Positions 49,731 to 60,176 of a stretch of DNA of 64,000 nt are shown piece after piece. Source of the stretch: Polaromonas sp. (GTDB lineage Bacteria; Pseudomonadota; Gammaproteobacteria; Burkholderiales; Burkholderiaceae_C); NCBI RefSeq assembly GCF_012927485.1, contig NZ_JABBPC010000008.1:1-64000 (forward strand), in the 5' to 3' direction. Below the pieces are notes generated by a model. That model had not been told where the DNA came from and ran no database searches. It worked only from the letters and a program-made list of their open reading frames with translations. The stretch's first letter is position 1. Each line of letters begins with the position of its first letter. The position numbers and the translations under genes were made by a program.

Positions 49731-50053
49731 GTCGATTCCTTCGTTGGCCTCAGAGGGCGGGTTAAAAAATACGCACGCCGCAAAGGGCTAACGCTAATTT
49801 CAATTTAGCGAACGCTGCTCGCCGGTCTTATCGGAGAGGCGCGCCGCAGCACGTAGGACACCGCGCTCGCCGGTTGTGGCTTTGAATGCGGTGTGTTGTG
49901 CGCTAGACACTCACTGTGCAATCGACGTCGGGTTTGTGCTGAACTATCGACGCGGTGGGGTGGGTCGCCGTAAAGAAGTTGCTGTCCTACAGCGGCGCGG
50001 TTCTTGAAGATTAACAATATGAGTTGGTTGTACCTTTCTGGTCCCACTTTCAT
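49731..50053. other. Divergent intergenic region before the ybhP-like gene
   Basis: 323 bp with no gene. A repeat CGCTAA, seven bases, TTAGCG lies at 49792-49810, near the start of the repeat-protein gene. No clear -35/-10 pair was assigned. Confidence 0.4.
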
Positions 50054-50950
50054 ATGCAACCTCCCTTTCCCGATTCATCCCCGCGCGGCGCGCCCGCCAC
50101 TCTGACTGTAGCGCCCGCTGTGCGCCCCCCAGTTACCCCGATTGATATGACCGCCGTAGAAACCGATACGCAAGTGGCACTTGCCGCGGTGAGCGCTGAG
50201 TCGTCGTTCTCGTTCAAAGTGCTCACGGTCAATATCCACAAAGGCTTCACATTTTTCAACCGTAAATTTATTCTTCCGGAATTGCGCGAAGCCGTGCGCG
50301 CCGTGGGTCCGGACGTGGTGTTCCTGCAGGAGGTGACCGGTAACCACCTTAAATATCCAGACAAATTCGACAACTACCCAGATACGCCGCACTACGAATT
50401 TCTGGCGGACACGATCTGGCCGCAGTTCGCTTACGGACGCAACGCGGTCTATAACAACGGCCATCATGGCAATGCGGTGTTGTCGAAATTTCCCATTGTG
50501 CGTTCCGAGAATCACGATGTATCGATCAGTGGACCTGAGAGGCGCGGCCTGTTGCATTGCGAGTTGCATATCCCGGGTCGCAGCGTCAATGTGCATGTCA
50601 TCTGCGTACATCTGGGACTGATCGAAGAACACCGTACGCAGCAAATGGATATGTTGTGCAAACTCGTCCACACGGACATCCCCGCTCACGCGCCGGTGGT
50701 GGTGGCCGGCGACTTCAATGACTGGCGCCATCGCGCCCACGCCCAGCTAGAACGCGGTGCCGGACTGTATGAGATATTTGTCCAGGCCCAAGGCCAGGCC
50801 GCACGAACTTTTCCGGCGCGTTTGCCCGTGCTTCGGCTGGATCGCATCTATGTGCGCAACGCCATCGGTCACGCACCGGTCGTTCTCCCGAGCAGGCCCT
50901 GGTCCCATTTGTCCGATCACGCGCCCCTCGCTGCGGAGATCGAGTTGTGA
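50054..50950 (+). CDS. ybhP: Endonuclease/exonuclease/phosphatase family protein (YbhP-like)
   Basis: A 298-residue EEP-superfamily metal-dependent phosphodiesterase. The core begins [16 protein letters not shown], continues VFLQEV (metal-binding Glu), [11 protein letters not shown] (Asp/Asn pair) and ends [10 protein letters not shown] (catalytic Asp-His). E. coli ybhP, clsB and ybhN form the same three-gene set. ATG at 50054 is used; upstream TTG and downstream ATG at 50150 are possible, because the first 50 residues are low-complexity. Confidence 0.85.
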
Positions 50951-50987
50951 GCCCAGCCCGCGCTGGGTGCGGCGCGGAGGCTTCTTA

Positions 50988-52274
50988 ATGCATCGATGGG
51001 TCGGCGGCAATCAATTCAAGCTGCTCGAAAATGGGGAAGAGTTTTTTCCCCGCGTCTTCGAATGCATTGCCGCAGCGCAACGCGAAGTCGTGATCGAAAC
51101 ATTTATTTTGTTTGAAGACAAGGTCGGTAAGGGGCTGCATGCTGCGTTGCTCCAGGCAGCCGGTCGCGGTGCACAAATAGACATCACCGTCGATGGCTAC
51201 GGTTCGCCCGACCTGTCGCCAGAATTCATTTCTTCGCTCACGCAGGTCGGCGTGCGGGTGCACGTGTTTGACCCCCGCCCCAAATTTTGGGGTTGGCGCA
51301 CCAATCTCTTTCGACGCCTGCACCGCAAGATCGTGGTAATCGATGGCGAGCGCGCTTTTGTCGGCGGCATTAATTTCGCCGCCGATCATTTGGCCGACTT
51401 CGGACCGTTGGCCAAGCAGGACTATGCCGTCGAAATTGAAGGCGCCATCGTCGCCGAGATTCACGAGTTTGTGCACCAGGCGCTGGAGGCGGGCCAGCGC
51501 AATGCGGGAGCGGCCTTCCCTGGTCCAATGCGCGCGCAATTTTCTGCCGACTTACAAACGCCGACCCGACCCTGGCGGCGCGCCACCCCGCCCCCTGCCG
51601 GTGACGCGGCGGCTATTTTTGTCACCCGGGACAATCGCAAACACACCAACGACATTGAGCAGCACTACCGCATTGCCATTCGCACCGCACGCCATCGCAT
51701 CGTGATCGCCAATGCCTATTTCTTTCCCGGTTACCGATTGCTCAAAGAGATGCGCAGGGCGGCGCAGCGCGGTGTCGATGTACAACTCATCCTGCAGGGT
51801 GAACCCGATATGGCCATTGTAAAAACAGCGGCAAGCATGCTTTACCACTACCTGCTGCGGGCGGGCGTGCGTATTTTTGAATATTCCGAGCGACCGTTGC
51901 ACGGCAAGGTCGCCGTGTCAGACGATGAATGGGCGACGGTGGGCTCCAGCAACCTGGATCCCTTGAGTCTGTCCTTGAACCTCGAAGCCAACGTCATCAT
52001 CAAAGATCGAGGGTTCAACCAGCTTTTAAGCGCTCGGCTAGACGACCTGATTCAGCACAGTTGCAAGCAGATTGGGCACGACGATTTAGTGGAATCCAGT
52101 GGCTGGCGCCTCGTTCGCAGCTTCCTTTTGTTTCACGTGCTTCGCCGCTACCCGGCCTGGGCCGGCTGGCTGCCGGCACATTCGCCGCGCATCACCTCGG
52201 CCAGTCCAAGCCCCCTTTCGCCCGGTGCGCTTTCTACCACTGCCGATCGGGTGAACCAGGCAGATCCCGCTTAA
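50988..52274 (+). CDS. clsB: Cardiolipin synthase B (phospholipase D family)
   Basis: A 428-residue enzyme with two HKD motifs, LHRKIVVIDGERAFVGGIN near residue 112 and LHGKVAVSDDEWATVGSSN near 305. It condenses phosphatidylglycerol (or with phosphatidylethanolamine) to cardiolipin at the inner membrane. GGAGG lies 7 bases before the ATG; the longer open frame upstream overlaps ybhP and is rejected. It lies between ybhP and ybhN homologues. Confidence 0.92.
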   Translation: MHRWVGGNQFKLLENGEEFFPRVFECIAAAQREVVIETFILFEDKVGKGLHAALLQAAGRGAQIDITVDGYGSPDLSPEFISSLTQVGVRVHVFDPRPKFWGWRTNLFRRLHRKIVVIDGERAFVGGINFAADHLADFGPLAKQDYAVEIEGAIVAEIHEFVHQALEAGQRNAGAAFPGPMRAQFSADLQTPTRPWRRATPPPAGDAAAIFVTRDNRKHTNDIEQHYRIAIRTARHRIVIANAYFFPGYRLLKEMRRAAQRGVDVQLILQGEPDMAIVKTAASMLYHYLLRAGVRIFEYSERPLHGKVAVSDDEWATVGSSNLDPLSLSLNLEANVIIKDRGFNQLLSARLDDLIQHSCKQIGHDDLVESSGWRLVRSFLLFHVLRRYPAWAGWLPAHSPRITSASPSPLSPGALSTTADRVNQADPA

Positions 52275-52304
52275 GCGCCGGCTAGCCAGAAGGGTTTCCA
52301 GCCC

Positions 52305-53294
52305 ATGAATAAAGCGGCCTTGGCTTTTTCCGGAATGACCGATAGCGCCTGGTGGCCGTGGCTTAAGCGCGCCGCCGCCGCCGTTTTCTTTATATTGGTG
52401 GCGGGGCTGCTGGCCTCGCGGGCGCGCAGCATCGAATGGCGCCAGGTACTGACCTCGCTGCAGCACTACCCTCTAACGGCCGTGTGGGGTGCGGTGGGGC
52501 TGACCTTGGCCAGCTTCACGCTCTACAGCTGTTTTGATCTGCTGGGCCGCCACTATGTCGGCCATTCGCTGAGCACGCCAACGGTTATGACGGTTACTTT
52601 TATAAGTTACGCCTTCAACCTCAACCTGGGCTCAGTCGTCGGCGGTTTCGCCTTCCGTTACCGTCTCTATTCACGCCTGGGACTGGACAACGGTGTGATC
52701 ACGCGTATTTTGTCGCTGAGTATGCTGACCAACTGGACCGGCTATCTGCTTCTTGGCGGGTTGGTGTTCGCGCTGTATCCGCCGACGTTACCTGTCAGCT
52801 GGCCGATTGATGCCTCCCTTCTTCGCCTGATTGGACTGGCGTTGCTAACCACTTCAGTAGGCTACCTCAGCGTCTGTGCATTTTCCAGCAAGCGCACACT
52901 GCAGCTGCGGAGTCACGCGCTTGAATTACCGACGATCCGGATGGCCGGTCTGCAACTGCTCATGGGCGTCAGCAATTGGCTCCTGATGTCGGGCATTCTT
53001 TTTATCCTGCTGCAGCAGCGTGTTGAATTTCCCATGGTCGTCAGCGTATTACTGCTGGCTGCGATCGCCGGCGTCATCACGCATATTCCGGCTGGTCTGG
53101 GCGTACTGGAGGCGGTGTTTGTGGCCCTGCTATCGCATCAGATGCACCGGCATGACGTGCTGGCCGCGTTGGTGGCCTACCGCGTGATTTACTACCTGGT
53201 GCCGCTTGGCATTGCTACGGTGGTCTACCTTGCCATGGAAGCTAAAGTCAAACGAAGTACCAAAACGGCTCGCGAGCCCAAAAAATCTTTTTAG
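52305..53294 (+). CDS. ybhN: YbhN/UPF0104-family membrane protein
   Basis: A 329-residue integral membrane protein with about eight hydrophobic helices, related to the lysylphosphatidylglycerol synthase transmembrane domain. Family blocks are FISYAFNLNLGSVVGGFAFR and ITHIPAGLGVLEAVF. Located 30 bp after clsB, it likely aids lipid handling with that gene. The C-terminal tail is Lys/Arg-rich (KRSTKTAREPKKS). Confidence 0.9.
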   Translation: MNKAALAFSGMTDSAWWPWLKRAAAAVFFILVAGLLASRARSIEWRQVLTSLQHYPLTAVWGAVGLTLASFTLYSCFDLLGRHYVGHSLSTPTVMTVTFISYAFNLNLGSVVGGFAFRYRLYSRLGLDNGVITRILSLSMLTNWTGYLLLGGLVFALYPPTLPVSWPIDASLLRLIGLALLTTSVGYLSVCAFSSKRTLQLRSHALELPTIRMAGLQLLMGVSNWLLMSGILFILLQQRVEFPMVVSVLLLAAIAGVITHIPAGLGVLEAVFVALLSHQMHRHDVLAALVAYRVIYYLVPLGIATVVYLAMEAKVKRSTKTAREPKKSF

Positions 53295-53374
53295 CGGGCA
53301 AGGTTTCGGCGCGAAAAAACACCATCCTCGCGACAGGGACTCCTGCGAAAAGCACAAATAAAATTTGGCAACCA

Positions 53375-53390
53375 CTGTATATTATTACAG
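53375..53390 (+). promoter_or_regulatory. LexA-type SOS box overlapping the radical SAM gene start
   Basis: CTGTATATTATTACAG fits CTG-TN8A-CAG (CTGT, eight bases, ACAG) exactly, with an AT-rich core as in E. coli LexA boxes. Its last base is the first base of the GTG start codon, and ACTGT/ACAGT extends the symmetry to 53374-53391. A repressor bound here would block both transcription and access to the start. Confidence 0.75.
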
Positions 53391-54802
53391 TGCATATTCA
53401 ACAGAAACTTGCCATCCTTGCCGATGCGGCCAAATACGACGCGTCGTGTTCGTCCAGCGGCACCAGTAAACGCAATTCGGTAGGCGGAAAAGGCATTGGT
53501 TCGACGGAAGGGTCAGGTATTTGCCACAGCTACGCACCCGATGGTCGGTGCATTTCGCTGCTAAAGATTCTCTTCACCAATTTTTGCGTATACGACTGCC
53601 TGTACTGCGTTAACCGCGTCACGAGCAACGTCCCCCGGGCCCGCTTTACAGTCGATGAAGTAGTGGATCTGACGCTTGACTTTTACCGACGCAACTGCAT
53701 CGAAGGACTGTTTTTGTCGTCCGGCATTATCCAGAGCCCCGACTACACCATGGAACAGGTGGTGGAGGTGTCGCGCAAGCTGCGCGAAGATTACGACTTT
53801 CGCGGCTACATCCACCTCAAGACCATTCCTGACGCATCGCCGGAGCTCCTGGCCAGAGCCGGGCGTTACGCCGACCGGCTGAGCATCAACATTGAATTGC
53901 CCACGGTGCAAAGTCTCGAGGCGTTAGCGCCCGAAAAAAACAGCGCGGCCATTCGCCGCTCCATGGCGCATTTGCGCGTGCACATTGACGACGCCAAAGG
54001 GGCCGCCCGAGATGCCAGCCGAACGTCCGTTATATCGCTGCCTCATTCGCTCAAAGCGCACCGTGCGCGCCCGCCGCGCTTCGCACCGGGCGGGCAAAGT
54101 ACGCAGATGATTGTGGGTGCCGACGCGACCGATGACCGCACCATTCTTGCCACTAGCGCCACGCTGTACAGCGCCTACCAGTTGCGCCGAGTCTATTACT
54201 CGGCCTTTAGTCCCATTCCCGACGCCTCGTCCAGTCTGCCGCTGCGCCAGCCGCCATTGATTCGCGAGCATCGCCTTTACCAGGCCGATTGGTTGATCCG
54301 CTTTTACGGCTTTGCGCACGATGAAATCGTCCCGGAGGTCTCGGGTACAACTGCCAGCGCCGGAGCGGGCATGCTCGCACTCGACATCGACCCGAAACTG
54401 GCATGGGCACTGTCGCATCGTGAACAGTTTCCGGTGGATGTGAACCGCGCACCGCGTGAGCTGCTTTTGCGCGTGCCTGGCTTGGGAGTAAAGGCCGTTG
54501 TGCGCATCTTGCAGGCCCGACGCGTGCGCAAGATGCGTGCCGACGATTTGCTACGGCTGCACGTGCCGCTCAAGAAGGTGTTGCCGTTCGTGGTGCTGGC
54601 CGACCATCAACCGGGCGCGAGCCTGGATGCGCTCGATCTGGCGACCCGCTTACGGCCGGCCGCCGTGCAAGTGGATTTGTTCGACGAGCCTGATGCGAGC
54701 CCTCGTTTGCCCCTGCCGTTGCCACCGCCTTCTTTGTCTGCATCGCCTCCAAAATTAGAGCCGGTTGCAGGTGCAAAGTCAGCGTTTGACCTTACTTTGT
54801 AA
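53390..54802 (+). CDS. DNA modification/repair radical SAM protein (UdgX partner)
   Basis: A 470-residue radical SAM protein of the group that is always near UdgX-type uracil-DNA glycosylases. The cluster motif CVYDCLYC (CX3CX2C) starts at residue 66. The N-terminus HIQQKLAILADAAKYDASC matches the family start at GTG 53390. Near the C-terminus RVPGLGVKAVVRILQARR is a helix-hairpin-helix DNA-binding motif. It lies 51 bp before the glycosylase gene. The chemical role is unknown. Confidence 0.9.
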   Translation: MHIQQKLAILADAAKYDASCSSSGTSKRNSVGGKGIGSTEGSGICHSYAPDGRCISLLKILFTNFCVYDCLYCVNRVTSNVPRARFTVDEVVDLTLDFYRRNCIEGLFLSSGIIQSPDYTMEQVVEVSRKLREDYDFRGYIHLKTIPDASPELLARAGRYADRLSINIELPTVQSLEALAPEKNSAAIRRSMAHLRVHIDDAKGAARDASRTSVISLPHSLKAHRARPPRFAPGGQSTQMIVGADATDDRTILATSATLYSAYQLRRVYYSAFSPIPDASSSLPLRQPPLIREHRLYQADWLIRFYGFAHDEIVPEVSGTTASAGAGMLALDIDPKLAWALSHREQFPVDVNRAPRELLLRVPGLGVKAVVRILQARRVRKMRADDLLRLHVPLKKVLPFVVLADHQPGASLDALDLATRLRPAAVQVDLFDEPDASPRLPLPLPPPSLSASPPKLEPVAGAKSAFDLTL

Positions 54803-54853
54803 AAGATACAAGTTTGTCCAAATCTGTTTAGAGTGTGAAGAAAAAAGTACGGC

Positions 54854-56374
54854 ATGGACGTCACAAATGATCCGCTAACGAACGAGCTATTTCCGCAAGC
54901 CTTGATAGCCATCACGCTTCAGGGGGCCACAGATCTGGCGGGATTTCGCCAAGCGGCGCGTCGTTTATTGGCGCAGCAGATGCCGCCAGGTCAGGTGAGC
55001 TGGTTCAGTGCCGACACCCCCGCGCAGGATCTGTTCGCTCACGCAGACGGCGGCGTGTCAATCGACGCGCCGGCTGTGAATGTGCCCCCTGAATTTCTAG
55101 CGCTGTGTGAATCCGTGATTCTCCACAGTGATCCCAATCGGTTCGGCTTGTTGTATCGTCTTTTGTGGCGGCTATTAAAAGAGCCTGCATTACGACACGA
55201 CCCGCTGGACGCCGACAGGGTGCAGGCCCAGCGAATGGCGCAGGCGGTCCAGCGCGATAAACACAAAATGAAGGCCTTCGTGCGCTTTCGCACCGTACAG
55301 GATGAAGCGTTTAAAGCGTATCCAGACGGAGGCCCGCTGCACGTGGCGTGGTTTGAGCCCGAGCACCACATCGTTGAAGCGGTCGCGCCCTTTTTTGCGC
55401 GGCGCTTCACACAAATGCGCTGGGCCATCCTGACACCGGAACGCAGTGTGGAATGGAATGGTGCGCAACTGCATCTGGGCCCCGGCGCGCAACGCGAGCA
55501 GGCGCCGCCGCCCGACGCTGGCGAGCAGCTCTGGCTCACCTACTATCAGCACATCTTCAACCCCGCCCGGCTGAAGCTCAAAATGATGCAAAAGGAAATG
55601 CCGCGTCGCTACTGGAAAAACCTGCCCGAAGCGCAATTCATTAGCAGCTTGGCGGCGCAGGCGCCCGAACGGCGCATGAGCATGATCAGCCAGGCTCCCA
55701 GTATGCCGCGCCGCCGTATCCCGGTCAGTTCGGTCCTGCCAGCTGGCACTTCGGCTGCTGATTCGTCGCAAATTTCGCCGCTGACTCTGCCTGAACTGAA
55801 CAAAGCGGCACAACACTGCCGTGAATGTCCCATCGGACAGCACGCCACGCAGGCAGTGTGTGGTGAGGGCCGGATTGGCGCCCGCGTGATGGTGGTCGGC
55901 GAGCAACCCGGGGACCAGGAAGACCTGCGCGGCCGCCCCTTCGTAGGCCCAGCCGGGCAACTATTTGACCGCGCGCTTATCGATCTGGGTTGGGTGCGCG
56001 ATGACCTCTTTATTACCAACGCGGTCAAGCACTTTAAATACGAGCCGCGTGGTCGCCGCAGGATACACAAAACGCCCTCTCAGCAGGAAGCGGCGGCTTG
56101 CCTTCACTGGCTCGAGAGCGAGATTAGCCTGGTGCGACCCGCGGCGGTGATTGCGTTGGGCGCTACCGCAGCCGCTTCGCTGCTTGGCCGCCATGTGCCC
56201 GTCATGGCGGAGCGCGGACAATGGGTCACCCGTGCCGATGGCCTCCGCGTGCTGATCACCCTCCATCCCGCCGCGCTCTTGCGTACTGACGAACACCACC
56301 AACCAGCGGCCTATGAGGCATGGCTGAACGACTTGCGCCAAGTTAGTGCGTTCATGGACCCGCCCATCATTTAA
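54854..56374 (+). CDS. UdgX-type uracil-DNA glycosylase fused to DUF4130
   Basis: A 506-residue fusion. The N-terminal half (about 20-280) is the DUF4130 domain linked to the partner radical SAM protein, with RRFTQMRWAILTPERSVEW and WLTYYQHIFNPAR. The C-terminal half (about 310-500) is a family 4/5-like uracil-DNA glycosylase. Four Cys (CRECPIG and later Cys) bind [4Fe-4S], GEQPGDQEDLRGRPFVGPAG (about 347-366) is motif A, and the R-loop GRRRIHKTP near residue 402 contains the His that in UdgX forms a covalent bond with uracil sites. HPAALLRTD is motif B. Likely function: capture of uracil in single-stranded DNA. Confidence 0.92.
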   Translation: MDVTNDPLTNELFPQALIAITLQGATDLAGFRQAARRLLAQQMPPGQVSWFSADTPAQDLFAHADGGVSIDAPAVNVPPEFLALCESVILHSDPNRFGLLYRLLWRLLKEPALRHDPLDADRVQAQRMAQAVQRDKHKMKAFVRFRTVQDEAFKAYPDGGPLHVAWFEPEHHIVEAVAPFFARRFTQMRWAILTPERSVEWNGAQLHLGPGAQREQAPPPDAGEQLWLTYYQHIFNPARLKLKMMQKEMPRRYWKNLPEAQFISSLAAQAPERRMSMISQAPSMPRRRIPVSSVLPAGTSAADSSQISPLTLPELNKAAQHCRECPIGQHATQAVCGEGRIGARVMVVGEQPGDQEDLRGRPFVGPAGQLFDRALIDLGWVRDDLFITNAVKHFKYEPRGRRRIHKTPSQQEAAACLHWLESEISLVRPAAVIALGATAAASLLGRHVPVMAERGQWVTRADGLRVLITLHPAALLRTDEHHQPAAYEAWLNDLRQVSAFMDPPII

Positions 56375-56808
56375 GCGGGCTTTCGCTGCTGCCCAACCGA
56401 GGGGGAAACCCCGATCAATGCCGACCTGCTGGCGTTCCTCTGGCGTGGTGACTGAAATATTGGCTTGAATACCTTGATTTTTGCGATGGGATAACTGGTT
56501 CGGGCTAAGCCGGCTTCGTCGTCGCTTTCAGACGAGCAAAGTATCACCAAGAAGGCAGCGTTGCGTGCGCAGAAAACGAATGAAGCAAGGCGGTTACAAC
56601 TGGCAACGGCAAAAGCTCATAAAGTTCCGGGATAATAATTGTCAACCTTTACTTTTCACAAGGGCGCCGCCTGCCTGCATTCAATGCCTTCCACCTGCCA
56701 GGCAGAAAAAGGCGTTCATAACCCCGTTGATTTGGGCCCGCTTCTGTAACCGTTGGCTTTTGTTGTTTTAAATCAGGCGATCCCGTCCTTCCTGTTCATT
56801 CTCCACCC
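56375..56808. other. Intergenic region between udgX and minC
   Basis: 434 bp without a certain gene. A plus-strand open frame of 47 codons without ATG (56495-56635) ends in a lysine/alanine-rich C-terminal-like peptide (KKAALRAQKTNEARRLQL) and may be a remnant. The min promoter should be near 56640-56800. Confidence 0.4.
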
Positions 56809-57573
56809 ATGATTGTTGCCATGCGGGCTACTACCTCCGCCACCTTTGAAATCAAGAGCGCCAGCCTTCCGTTGGTCGCGCTGCTGCTTAAATCCCTGGA
56901 TTTGCAGGCTCTAGCGAGCGAGTTGAAGCTTAGGTTTGGTGATATTCCCGATTTCTTCGATCAAGATCCGCTGATGATCGATCTGTCGCCGCTAGAGGCG
57001 TCAGCGCACGCGGACGTCGGCCCGGCAGAGATCGATTTTTTGGCACTCGTGGCGTTGCTTCGCAGCTACCGTTTGGTACCCGTGGCCGTGAAAGGCGGTA
57101 GTCCTGCGCAGATGGCAGGGGCGCAGCAAGCGGGGCTACTGTTTGCGCCGGACGCGCATCTGGTGGGGGCCCGACCTGCCCCTCCCTCTACCGCAGCACC
57201 GGCTTTAGCCTCTTCCACGGCACCTCTTGGAGCGCTGGTTATCGACAAACCGCTGCGATCGGGTCAACAGGTGTATGCCCGCGGGCGGGATTTGGTGGTC
57301 ATGGCCATGGTCAATGCGGGGGCCGAGGTCATTGCCGACGGGCACATTCATGTTTACGCGCCATTGCGCGGTAAAGCCATGGCTGGCGCGCGAGGAAACA
57401 CCGATGCGCGCATTTTTGCGCTGGCGCTGGAGGCTGAGTTATTGTCTATCGCGGGTGTCTACCGCACCAGCGAAAATCCACTCCCACCCGGCGTGGCGGG
57501 CCAGCCTGCGCAGGTGCGGCTGCTACCCGGTCCTGACGGTGACAGGTTGGTTATGAGTGTCATGACCCACTGA
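56809..57573 (+). CDS. minC: Septum-site inhibitor MinC
   Basis: A 254-residue inhibitor of FtsZ polymerisation. The N-terminal domain (about 1-105) contacts FtsZ. The C-terminal beta-helix (about 140-250) has DLVVMAMVNAGAEVIADGHIHVYAPLRGKAMAGARG, broken here only by its own segment boundaries, and binds MinD. A second ATG at 56821 is possible. First gene of minCDE. Confidence 0.93.
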   Translation: MIVAMRATTSATFEIKSASLPLVALLLKSLDLQALASELKLRFGDIPDFFDQDPLMIDLSPLEASAHADVGPAEIDFLALVALLRSYRLVPVAVKGGSPAQMAGAQQAGLLFAPDAHLVGARPAPPSTAAPALASSTAPLGALVIDKPLRSGQQVYARGRDLVVMAMVNAGAEVIADGHIHVYAPLRGKAMAGARGNTDARIFALALEAELLSIAGVYRTSENPLPPGVAGQPAQVRLLPGPDGDRLVMSVMTH

Positions 57574-58997: not shown

Positions 58998-60176
58998 ATG
59001 AACAGATTCCAAAGCTTATTCAAGCCGCTGATGTGGCTGATGGCATTACTATTGGCCGGTTTTGCAGCCGGATGCGGCGGTGGAGGAGGAAATCAGATTG
59101 GCGCCGCTGCAGGCGCAAGCCCCTCGGCGGATGCCGCAAGCGGGCCGATAGTGCTTTCGACCAGCCCCAGTAATGGGGCTACAAATGTGGCGACCCGCAC
59201 CAATAGCAGCGACAACGTTGTGACCGGGATCGCGGTGACAGCCACCTTTAGCCAGCCGATGGATCCGGCATCGATCAACTCGTTCCCGGCCGGAACGCTG
59301 CTAACGTTCACGCTGAAAGAGACCACCGGATTGAACGTCCCCGGCACTGTCGCCCTGAATGCCGCGAACACGGCCGCCACCTTTACGCCCACCGCGTCCG
59401 CGCTGATCCCGAATACCAACTACACCGCGACTGTGAGCACTGCGGCCAAGAACGCTGGCGGCACTCGGATGGCCAGTCCGGTTGTGTGGAGCTTTACGAC
59501 CAACGCCATCGCCTCCACCGCTCAGGCACCGGTTAACCTCGGAAGCGCTGGTACCTTCGCGATTCTGAGCAAAACCGGAATCACCGACGTCTATAAATCG
59601 GCCATTGTTGGGGATGTCGGAACAAGCCCCATCACCGGTGCGGCGCTCCTTCTCACATGCGGGGAAGTGACGGGCAAAATCTACGTCGTCGATGCTGCGG
59701 GCCCACTTCCCTGCGCAGTGACTGATGCTACCGCCCTGACGGCCGCAGTGGGCAGCATGGAAACCGCGTTCACCAGCGCAGCCGGACGGACCTTACCCAA
59801 TTTCACTGAGCTGGGTGCCGGGGAGATTGGCGGACTCACTTTGGCTCCCGGTCTCTATAAATGGGGTACCGATGTCCTGATTAGCACGGATGTCACGCTT
59901 TCGGGCGGTCCGAACGACGTCTGGATCTTCCAGGTAGCGGGTAAATTGGTCCAGGCCAATGCGAAACGGGTGACTTTGGCTGGCGGTGCGCTGGCGAAGA
60001 ATATCTTTTGGCAAGTCGCTGACGATGTGTCCATTGGAACAACGGCTCACTTTGAGGGCGTTCTTTTGGCTAAAAAACTCGTTGCCGTGAATACCGGCGC
60101 CTCTGCAAACGGCCGACTGCTGGCGCAAACTGCGGTCACGCTTCAATCGAGCGCCATCACACAGCCGGCCCCGTGA
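58998..60176 (+). CDS. Lipoprotein with Big_5 and ice-binding-like (DUF3494) domains
   Basis: A 392-residue envelope protein. The signal peptide ends in a lipobox (LLAGFAAGC) followed by five Gly, so it should be lipidated at Cys29 or so. A Big_5 Ig-like domain (about 50-170) is followed by the DUF3494 beta-helix (about 178-388), which begins VNLGSAGTFAILSKTGITD and contains LAPGLYKWGTDVLISTDVTL and VWIFQVAGKL, as in bacterial and fungal ice-binding proteins. Likely role: surface adhesion to ice or recrystallisation inhibition; DUF3494 proteins also occur in non-cold bacteria, so activity is inferred. Confidence 0.88.
   Translation: MNRFQSLFKPLMWLMALLLAGFAAGCGGGGGNQIGAAAGASPSADAASGPIVLSTSPSNGATNVATRTNSSDNVVTGIAVTATFSQPMDPASINSFPAGTLLTFTLKETTGLNVPGTVALNAANTAATFTPTASALIPNTNYTATVSTAAKNAGGTRMASPVVWSFTTNAIASTAQAPVNLGSAGTFAILSKTGITDVYKSAIVGDVGTSPITGAALLLTCGEVTGKIYVVDAAGPLPCAVTDATALTAAVGSMETAFTSAAGRTLPNFTELGAGEIGGLTLAPGLYKWGTDVLISTDVTLSGGPNDVWIFQVAGKLVQANAKRVTLAGGALAKNIFWQVADDVSIGTTAHFEGVLLAKKLVAVNTGASANGRLLAQTAVTLQSSAITQPAP

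What the first reader, a model, noticed from the sequence alone, without database searches (positions are those of the whole stretch)
53374..56374. SOS-type box overlaps the start of a radical SAM + UdgX cassette
A perfect CTGT-N8-ACAG palindrome with AT-only core ends on the GTG start of the radical SAM gene, with no ribosome-binding sequence visible before it. The next gene encodes a UdgX-type glycosylase with the covalent-bond His in its R-loop, fused to DUF4130. LexA control would make this a damage-inducible uracil-capture system. The role of the radical SAM partner is still unknown.
Basis: partly seen in the sequence, partly recalled or inferred. Interest (0 to 1): 0.75.

Follow-up and report, generated by a model that had tools for sequence, protein, structure and literature searches.

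The report
SOS-controlled radical SAM and UdgX operon
A two-gene DNA-repair cassette sits behind a likely binding site for the DNA-damage repressor LexA that also seems to hold the promoter and the first letter of the start codon; cassettes of this kind were already reported to be damage-controlled in other bacteria, so this is a well-supported new case with an unusually compact promoter.

Summary
A CTGT-N8-ACAG box (53375-53390) ends on the GTG start of a radical SAM gene (TIGR03916), followed by a DUF4130-UdgX fusion. By count alone the box is not significant in this window, but comparison makes LexA control close to certain: 72 of 79 named relatives carry CTGT-N8-[AC]CAG upstream (0.12 expected), and 54 of 54 loci from other classes of the phylum carry the alpha-type LexA site instead. 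Two related genomes without a convincing LexA carry none.

In 60 of 80 loci, own copy included, the GTG overlaps the box, and a TANATT inside it would place transcription start on that GTG: probably a leaderless mRNA.

"Uracil capture" is only partly right. DUF4130 was found in 80 of 80 named loci, UdgX in 54 of 80 (some misses are cut contigs). Sixteen UdgX-lacking genomes searched whole have none over the cut-off. UdgX looks like an optional add-on to a core whose lesion is unknown.

SOS control of such a UDG pair is in print for Bacteroidetes, Verrucomicrobia and Alphaproteobacteria. New member of a known kind; the promoter geometry is the new detail.

The parts
53373..53392 (.). LexA operator, CACTGT-ATATTATT-ACAGTG (strict box CTGT-N8-ACAG at 53375-53390)
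   Evidence: conserved in relatives
53378..53383 (+). inferred -10 element TATATT inside the operator (TANATT in relatives); predicted transcript start at 53390
   Evidence: position frequencies over 58 distinct flanks; the consensus sigma-70 scan found no promoter here, and no good -35 is visible
53390..54802 (+). radical SAM gene, GTG start overlapping the operator; radical SAM core plus C-terminal helix-hairpin-helix motif; TIGR03916
53585..53608 (+). CX3CX2C radical SAM cluster motif (C66, C70, C73); C20, C45 and C54 are also invariant in 72 of 72 aligned rows
54854..56374 (+). fusion gene DUF4130 - UdgX, second gene of the inferred operon (51-nt gap, no second perfect box)
54926..55633 (+). 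DUF4130 domain (TIGR03915), residues 25-260, the constant partner of the radical SAM protein
55640..56344 (+). UdgX domain (TIGR03914), residues 263-497
56054..56068 (+). UdgX R-loop RRRIH, His405 = counterpart of the crosslinking His109 of M. smegmatis UdgX

Best explanation
This is a LexA-repressed SOS operon encoding a DNA-lesion-processing pair: a radical SAM protein with a helix-hairpin-helix motif, and DUF4130, here fused to a UdgX module. LexA sits on a box that contains the -10 element and the first base of the start codon, so it blocks RNA polymerase directly. When RecA* makes LexA cleave itself, transcription starts at or next to the G of the GTG and gives a leaderless mRNA. The radical SAM-DUF4130 core then acts on a lesion not yet identified. 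The optional UdgX module removes uracil and bonds covalently to the resulting abasic site, shielding it and holding the partner at the site. Shown by sequence: the box, its conservation, its change with LexA type, the overlap, the families and the catalytic motifs. Inferred: LexA binding, induction, the transcript start, leaderless translation, the operon, and the chemistry of the radical SAM and DUF4130 proteins. My sub-estimates: LexA control 0.95; leaderless in this clade 0.75; UdgX makes the covalent bond 0.85; radical SAM-DUF4130 acts on DNA lesions 0.65; uracil is the main target of the cassette 0.3.
For: CTGT-N8-[AC]CAG within 160 nt upstream in 72 of 79 named relatives; reversed control 0 of 79; 0.12 expected. 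Strict box in 11 of 18 loci of the order sample, own included. 15 of 18 loci of other orders of the class have CTGT-N8-[AC]CAG, and 54 of 54 loci of other classes have the alpha-type site and none the CTGT type. Two Neisseria-like genomes without a convincing LexA have no box, and three genomes with a divergent LexA have a divergent box resembling that of their own lexA. Own genome: lexA (225.4 bits) with two one-mismatch boxes, and imuA with a perfect box. Overlap with GTG in 60 of 80; core positions 5, 7, 8, 9 of the box (A, A, T, T) at 93-100% in 58 distinct flanks. UdgX fold and motifs. Prior reports of SOS control of a UDG-COG4277 pair.
Against: No binding or expression data. The bare pattern is not significant in the window, and the consensus scan found no sigma-70 promoter at the site. 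7 of 79 named loci lack CTGT-N8-[AC]CAG (L043, L052, L076, L095, L100, L101, L108); 20 of 80 lack the overlap. Two loci in genomes with canonical LexA (L022, L039) and three gamma loci of one family (L195-L197) have no box, nor has L164. The first T of TANATT belongs to the CTGT arm used to pick the sites, so its 100% is partly by selection. Many relatives are close kin, so counts are not independent events. The radical SAM fold matches shown are led by HydE, biotin synthase and lipoyl synthase, with no spore photoproduct lyase among the 50 shown, so no DNA-lesion chemistry is shown.
Confidence: 0.82

Rival explanations
1. One reading: the operon exists to capture uracil in DNA; UdgX is the main actor and the radical SAM protein is its helper.
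For: UdgX catalytic residues are intact (His405 in 48 of 50 rows); a UdgX hit lies near the radical SAM gene in 54 of 80 named loci and 11 of 20 diverse loci.
Against: UdgX was not found in 26 of 80 named loci, some of them cut short by contig ends, nor in 9 of 20 diverse loci (one cut short), while DUF4130 is present in all 100. 16 of the 26 were taken to whole genomes: 0 of 16 have UdgX over the cut-off; one has a 154-bit match below the 189.95 cut-off. CTGT-N8-[AC]CAG is still upstream in 23 of the 26, and in 15 of those 16. The host also has a canonical Ung.
Confidence: 0.25
2. The box is a LexA site but the gene is not leaderless: transcription starts upstream and an SD-less leader is translated from the GTG.
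For: No good -35 at the spacing required by the embedded -10; 20 of 80 loci lack the overlap, most of them with a start further downstream.
Against: Box positions 5, 7, 8 and 9 are 93-100% conserved against 60-90% at 10-12, an asymmetry a -10 element would explain, and the spacing places +1 on the GTG; SD pairing is nearly absent in the overlapping class (1 of 60 at -4.5 kcal/mol or below; 2 of 20 in the rest).
Confidence: 0.2
3. The box is a chance AT-rich palindrome or the site of another regulator.
For: Perfect boxes are not rare enough in one window.
Against: Position-specific conservation in relatives, exchange for the alpha-type LexA motif in other classes, and absence in two genomes without a convincing LexA.
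Confidence: 0.02

Closest known systems
SOS-regulated UDG-COG4277 two-gene operon of Bacteroidetes, also reported for Verrucomicrobia and Alphaproteobacteria (PMC8565304 and its references 7 and 65; passages of PMC8565304 read, the two references not held)
   Same: Uracil-DNA glycosylase gene paired with a COG4277 gene under a LexA-type site. That COG4277 is the TIGR03916 kind is recalled; the HhH match fits it.
   Different: Here the LexA motif is CTGT-N8-ACAG, the host is Comamonadaceae-like (inferred from its nearest relatives), the UDG is fused to DUF4130, and the operator overlaps the start codon. The passages seen do not mention DUF4130 or UdgX crosslinking.
NCBIfam trio TIGR03916 / TIGR03915 / TIGR03914
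   Same: All three models hit over their cut-offs.
   Different: The models are annotation families; nothing in the scan output concerns regulation.
Mycobacterium smegmatis UdgX (PDB 6ajo, 6l6s and others)
   Same: Fold (TM-score up to 0.94 by target length), 44-47% identity, GEQPG, R-loop His.
   Different: The solved chains hold the UdgX domain alone (191-229 residues); here it is fused to DUF4130 and next to a radical SAM gene.
splB under SOS control in alpha- and beta-Proteobacteria (PMC3323433, sections 7 and 8 read)
   Same: A predicted repair gene homologous to spore photoproduct lyase with LexA sites in these classes, Variovorax paradoxus among the species listed.
   Different: Described as a homologue of B. 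subtilis spore photoproduct lyase. Whether any of those genes is a TIGR03916 gene could not be checked here.
Leaderless SOS gene: lexA of M. tuberculosis (PMC2897130, passages read)
   Different: Another gene and phylum; operator overlap with the start codon is not discussed in the passages seen.

Membership tests
LexA (SOS) regulon, CTGT-N8-ACAG type | consensus operator placed to block the promoter | tested here: met
   operator; the promoter itself is inferred (no match in the consensus scan)
LexA (SOS) regulon, CTGT-N8-ACAG type | host encodes a LexA with that specificity | tested here: met
   LexA 225.4 bits; its own promoter has CTGG-N8-ACAG twice, one mismatch each; imuA has a perfect box
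LexA (SOS) regulon, CTGT-N8-ACAG type | operator conserved in orthologues and changing with LexA type | tested here: met
   with the exceptions told under evidence against
LexA (SOS) regulon, CTGT-N8-ACAG type | LexA binding and RecA-dependent induction by DNA damage | not testable with these tools
   needs footprint and expression data
UdgX family | motif A GEQPG, R-loop KRRIH-like with the nucleophilic His, motif B HPS(S/A)(L/V)(L/V)R | tested here: met
   motif B reads HPAALLR (A in place of S, as in 6 of 50 rows of A2) and the R-loop RRRIH (R in place of K)
UdgX family | covalent, SDS-stable complex with uracil DNA | not testable with these tools
   needs purified protein
TIGR03916 radical SAM | score over cut-off, CX3CX2C, partner TIGR03915 next to it | tested here: met
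Spore photoproduct lyase (SplB) | fold or sequence relation to SplB | tested here: inconclusive
   no SPL entry among the 50 PDB fold matches shown (57 in all with E <= 0.001), the best being HydE, biotin synthase and lipoyl synthase; none among the 23 weak sequence matches
Leaderless transcript | transcription start at or within a few bases of the start codon | not testable with these tools
   predicted only, from the -10 position

The most novel reading that the evidence does not exclude
Radical SAM + DUF4130 is an unrecognised core repair enzyme of the SOS response across Pseudomonadota. Its lesion is not uracil, and UdgX is a detachable targeting module. In two clades with different LexA motifs (Comamonadaceae-like and, by inference, alpha-proteobacterial genomes) its promoter has been pressed into one element in which operator and -10 run into or up to the start codon, so that a damaged cell makes a leaderless mRNA.
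Probability: 0.4. Interest if true: 0.7.

Novelty: new member of a known kind. Interest (0 to 1): 0.45.

Why it matters
The physiological role of UdgX is called largely unknown in the 2023 paper (passages read), and I found no solved structure related in sequence to DUF4130 (E up to 0.01). Showing that the cassette, where present, nearly always carries the local LexA-type site in the Pseudomonadota genomes sampled, and that DUF4130 rather than UdgX is the constant partner, says which genes to delete and under which stress to test them. The overlapping operator, -10 and GTG make a compact, testable case of leaderless translation under damage.

Tried and rejected
Chance palindrome: rejected through conservation and the reversed-pattern controls, although the window count alone would not exclude it. 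Start far downstream: rejected for most of the family (56 of 60). SplB membership: not supported by the fold matches shown. Second look with VIA-align: library not available. RNA families in 53000-57000: none. Sigma-70 promoter scan of 53000-56900: nothing on the + strand. Literature: UdgX with radical SAM and UdgX with LexA gave 0 papers each; TIGR03914/03915/03916/DUF4130/rSAM_link_UDG gave 2 papers; COG4277 gave 1; LexA+SOS+radical SAM+uracil-DNA glycosylase gave 1. This library holds only CC0, CC BY and CC BY-SA papers, and the Verrucomicrobia, Caulobacter and noncanonical beta LexA papers were not held, so prior description in Betaproteobacteria is not excluded.

Flaws to know: in alignment A2, two of 50 rows (L088 and L104, 18-19% identity to the window) probably come from wrong-frame ORFs picked by my script and add noise to the conservation counts and to the model. 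The flank cut-offs differ: one search used 77 named loci (200 nt upstream needed), searches used 79. The two-mismatch near-box before recA was read by eye. The genomes are unnamed; calling them alpha, gamma or Neisseria-like is inferred from kinship labels, motif and recalled knowledge. LexA types were checked by a LexA search only in the order sample and the own genome, not in the phylum sample.
Full report
Observation. The box CTGTATATTATTACAG lies at 53375-53390 and its last base is the G of the GTG that opens the radical SAM frame. By pattern count alone it is not remarkable in this window: 2 matches, 0.64 expected. In the 3.5-Mb genome 27 such boxes exist against 12 of the reversed pattern; this is the only one of the 27 with an all-A/T core. 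One with 6 of 8 A/T lies 26 nt before imuA (189 bits to NF033429), a gene of a known SOS mutagenesis cassette (PMC3323433 lists imuA-imuB-dnaE2 in the conserved alpha and beta SOS core, section 7 read). One with 7 of 8 A/T lies inside an ORF (L005).

Proteins. The first gene is TIGR03916, and the second joins TIGR03915 (DUF4130) to TIGR03914 (UdgX), all over cut-off. The UdgX part keeps GEQPG, an RRRIH R-loop and HPAALLR, close to the signature set described for M. smegmatis UdgX (KRRIH; HPS(S/A)(L/V)(L/V)R, abstract and passages seen). Its model matches solved UdgX structures at 44-47% identity. The radical SAM protein has the CX3CX2C motif and three further cysteines (C20, C45, C54), each invariant in 72 of 72 aligned sequences, which could bind a second cluster (inference). 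Its C-terminal part has a helix-hairpin-helix motif (HHH_3 in 50 of 72 members at E up to 0.01, under Pfam's cut-off for the window's own protein).

LexA control. In the named relatives (best 80 of 465 found), 38 of 77 with enough flank have the perfect box, 35 more a one-mismatch box, and 4 neither, while 0.05 perfect boxes were expected. With the second arm allowed as ACAG or CCAG the count is 72 of 79, reversed control 0 of 79. In the order sample (TIGR03916 over cut-off in 18 of 300 genomes) 11 of 18 have the perfect box, the own copy included. In the phylum sample 84 of 398 genomes have TIGR03916 over cut-off and all 84 upstream regions were read: 10 were already in hand and 74 are. Of 18 loci of other orders of the class, 15 have CTGT-N8-[AC]CAG. 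Of 54 loci of other classes, 54 have GAAC-N7-GAAC or its complement and none has the CTGT type; the reversed alpha pattern occurs in 2 of 54 and the reversed CTGT pattern in 1 of 54. The alpha-type LexA motif is recalled knowledge. The other two of the 74 are L164, without a site, and L213 of the window's own family, with a perfect site. Loci of the order sample without a CTGT-type box include two Neisseria-like genomes with no convincing LexA (G262 none; G292 21.6 bits). Three genomes with a divergent LexA (98-100 bits, under cut-off) have a divergent box resembling the one before their own lexA; one of them (L021) is one mismatch from the CTGT type. Exceptions against the rule are L022 and L039 (canonical LexA, no box) and L195-L197 (one gamma family).

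Promoter geometry. In 60 of 80 loci (79 named plus the own copy) an in-frame GTG begins on the last G of the box (33 perfect boxes, 26 with one mismatch, 1 with two). In 56 of 60 no further ATG/GTG/TTG lies before the conserved N-terminus, and in 45 of 60 it is the only start in the frame. Box positions 4-9 read TANATT: over 58 distinct flanks T 1.00, A 1.00, N, A 0.93, T 0.93, T 1.00; positions 10-12 are C 0.60, A 0.71, T 0.90. The first T is part of the CTGT arm used to pick the sites, so only positions 5-9 are free evidence. Read as a -10 element, its usual distance to the transcript start (recalled) gives position 16, the G of the GTG. Shine-Dalgarno pairing is nearly absent (1 of 60 at -4.5 kcal/mol or below, 2 of 20 in the other loci). 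Of 40 loci with the GAAC-N7-GAAC orientation, 23 have the first in-frame start exactly 2 bases after the box, which suggests a similar design with another LexA motif; the other-class loci with only the opposite orientation were not measured there. In the gamma loci that carry a box the start lies further downstream. Against this: no good -35 is visible and the consensus scan found no promoter.

What the cassette is for. A DUF4130 hit lies in 80 of 80 named loci and 20 of 20 diverse loci; UdgX was found in 54 of 80 and 11 of 20. Some of the misses are cut contigs, so 16 of the 26 named misses were taken to whole genomes: none has UdgX over the cut-off, one has a 154-bit match below it. CTGT-N8-[AC]CAG is upstream in 23 of the 26, and in 15 of the 16. 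The host has a canonical Ung as well. So the constant unit is radical SAM + DUF4130 and UdgX is optional. My best reading is an SOS-induced enzyme pair acting on a DNA lesion not yet named, with UdgX as a covalent cap at uracil or abasic sites. The chemistry of the core is inference: the radical SAM fold matches HydE, biotin synthase and lipoyl synthase best, with modest scores (TM about 0.35 by query length).

Prior knowledge. PMC8565304 (passages) reports sites of SOS type before a UDG-COG4277 two-gene operon in Bacteroidetes and cites the same for Verrucomicrobia and Alphaproteobacteria. [quoted passage not shown] SOS control of this cassette is therefore not new in kind. What I did not find in the held papers is the Comamonadaceae case, the change of operator with LexA type for TIGR03916, and the operator/-10/start overlap (searches; listings, with passages or sections opened of seven papers: PMC8565304, PMC3765255, PMC10359453, PMC10776899 (no passage matched), PMC3323433, PMC1839093, PMC2897130); papers outside that library could hold them.

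Noticed in passing
window 58998-60176 (+): Ice-binding-like protein (PF11999, 203 bits) with a bacterial Ig-like domain, suggesting a cold-adapted host.
   Followed up: partly
window 50024-53294 (+): Endonuclease/exonuclease/phosphatase family gene, cardiolipin synthase ClsB and an MprF-type flippase-domain gene in a row; this recalls the E. coli ybhP-ybhO-ybhN cluster (recalled).
   Followed up: partly
window 53390-54802: Three cysteines outside the radical SAM motif (C20, C45, C54) are invariant in 72 of 72 homologues, possibly ligands of a second iron-sulfur cluster.
   Followed up: partly
L020, L021, L023, L134-L136: One family of the order has a divergent LexA (98-100 bits), with TGTACATTCGTACA-like sites before lexA and related ACGNNCGTACAA sites before the radical SAM gene: the operator seems to have co-evolved.
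   Followed up: partly
L183-L186, L190, L191, L215: In one group of other-class genomes the LexA-type site is GTTCATGATATGTTC in all seven and begins 96-99 nt before the nearest ATG, with a leader, unlike the near-leaderless layout of many others.
   Followed up: no
L044, L045: Two Polaromonas loci carry two LexA boxes before the radical SAM gene, the second overlapping the GTG.
   Followed up: no
L156 1501-1516: A perfect CTGT-N8-ACAG box (core 5 of 8 A/T) of the own genome lies 67 nt before a 418-aa ORF whose function I did not look up; a possible further SOS gene or chance.
   Followed up: no
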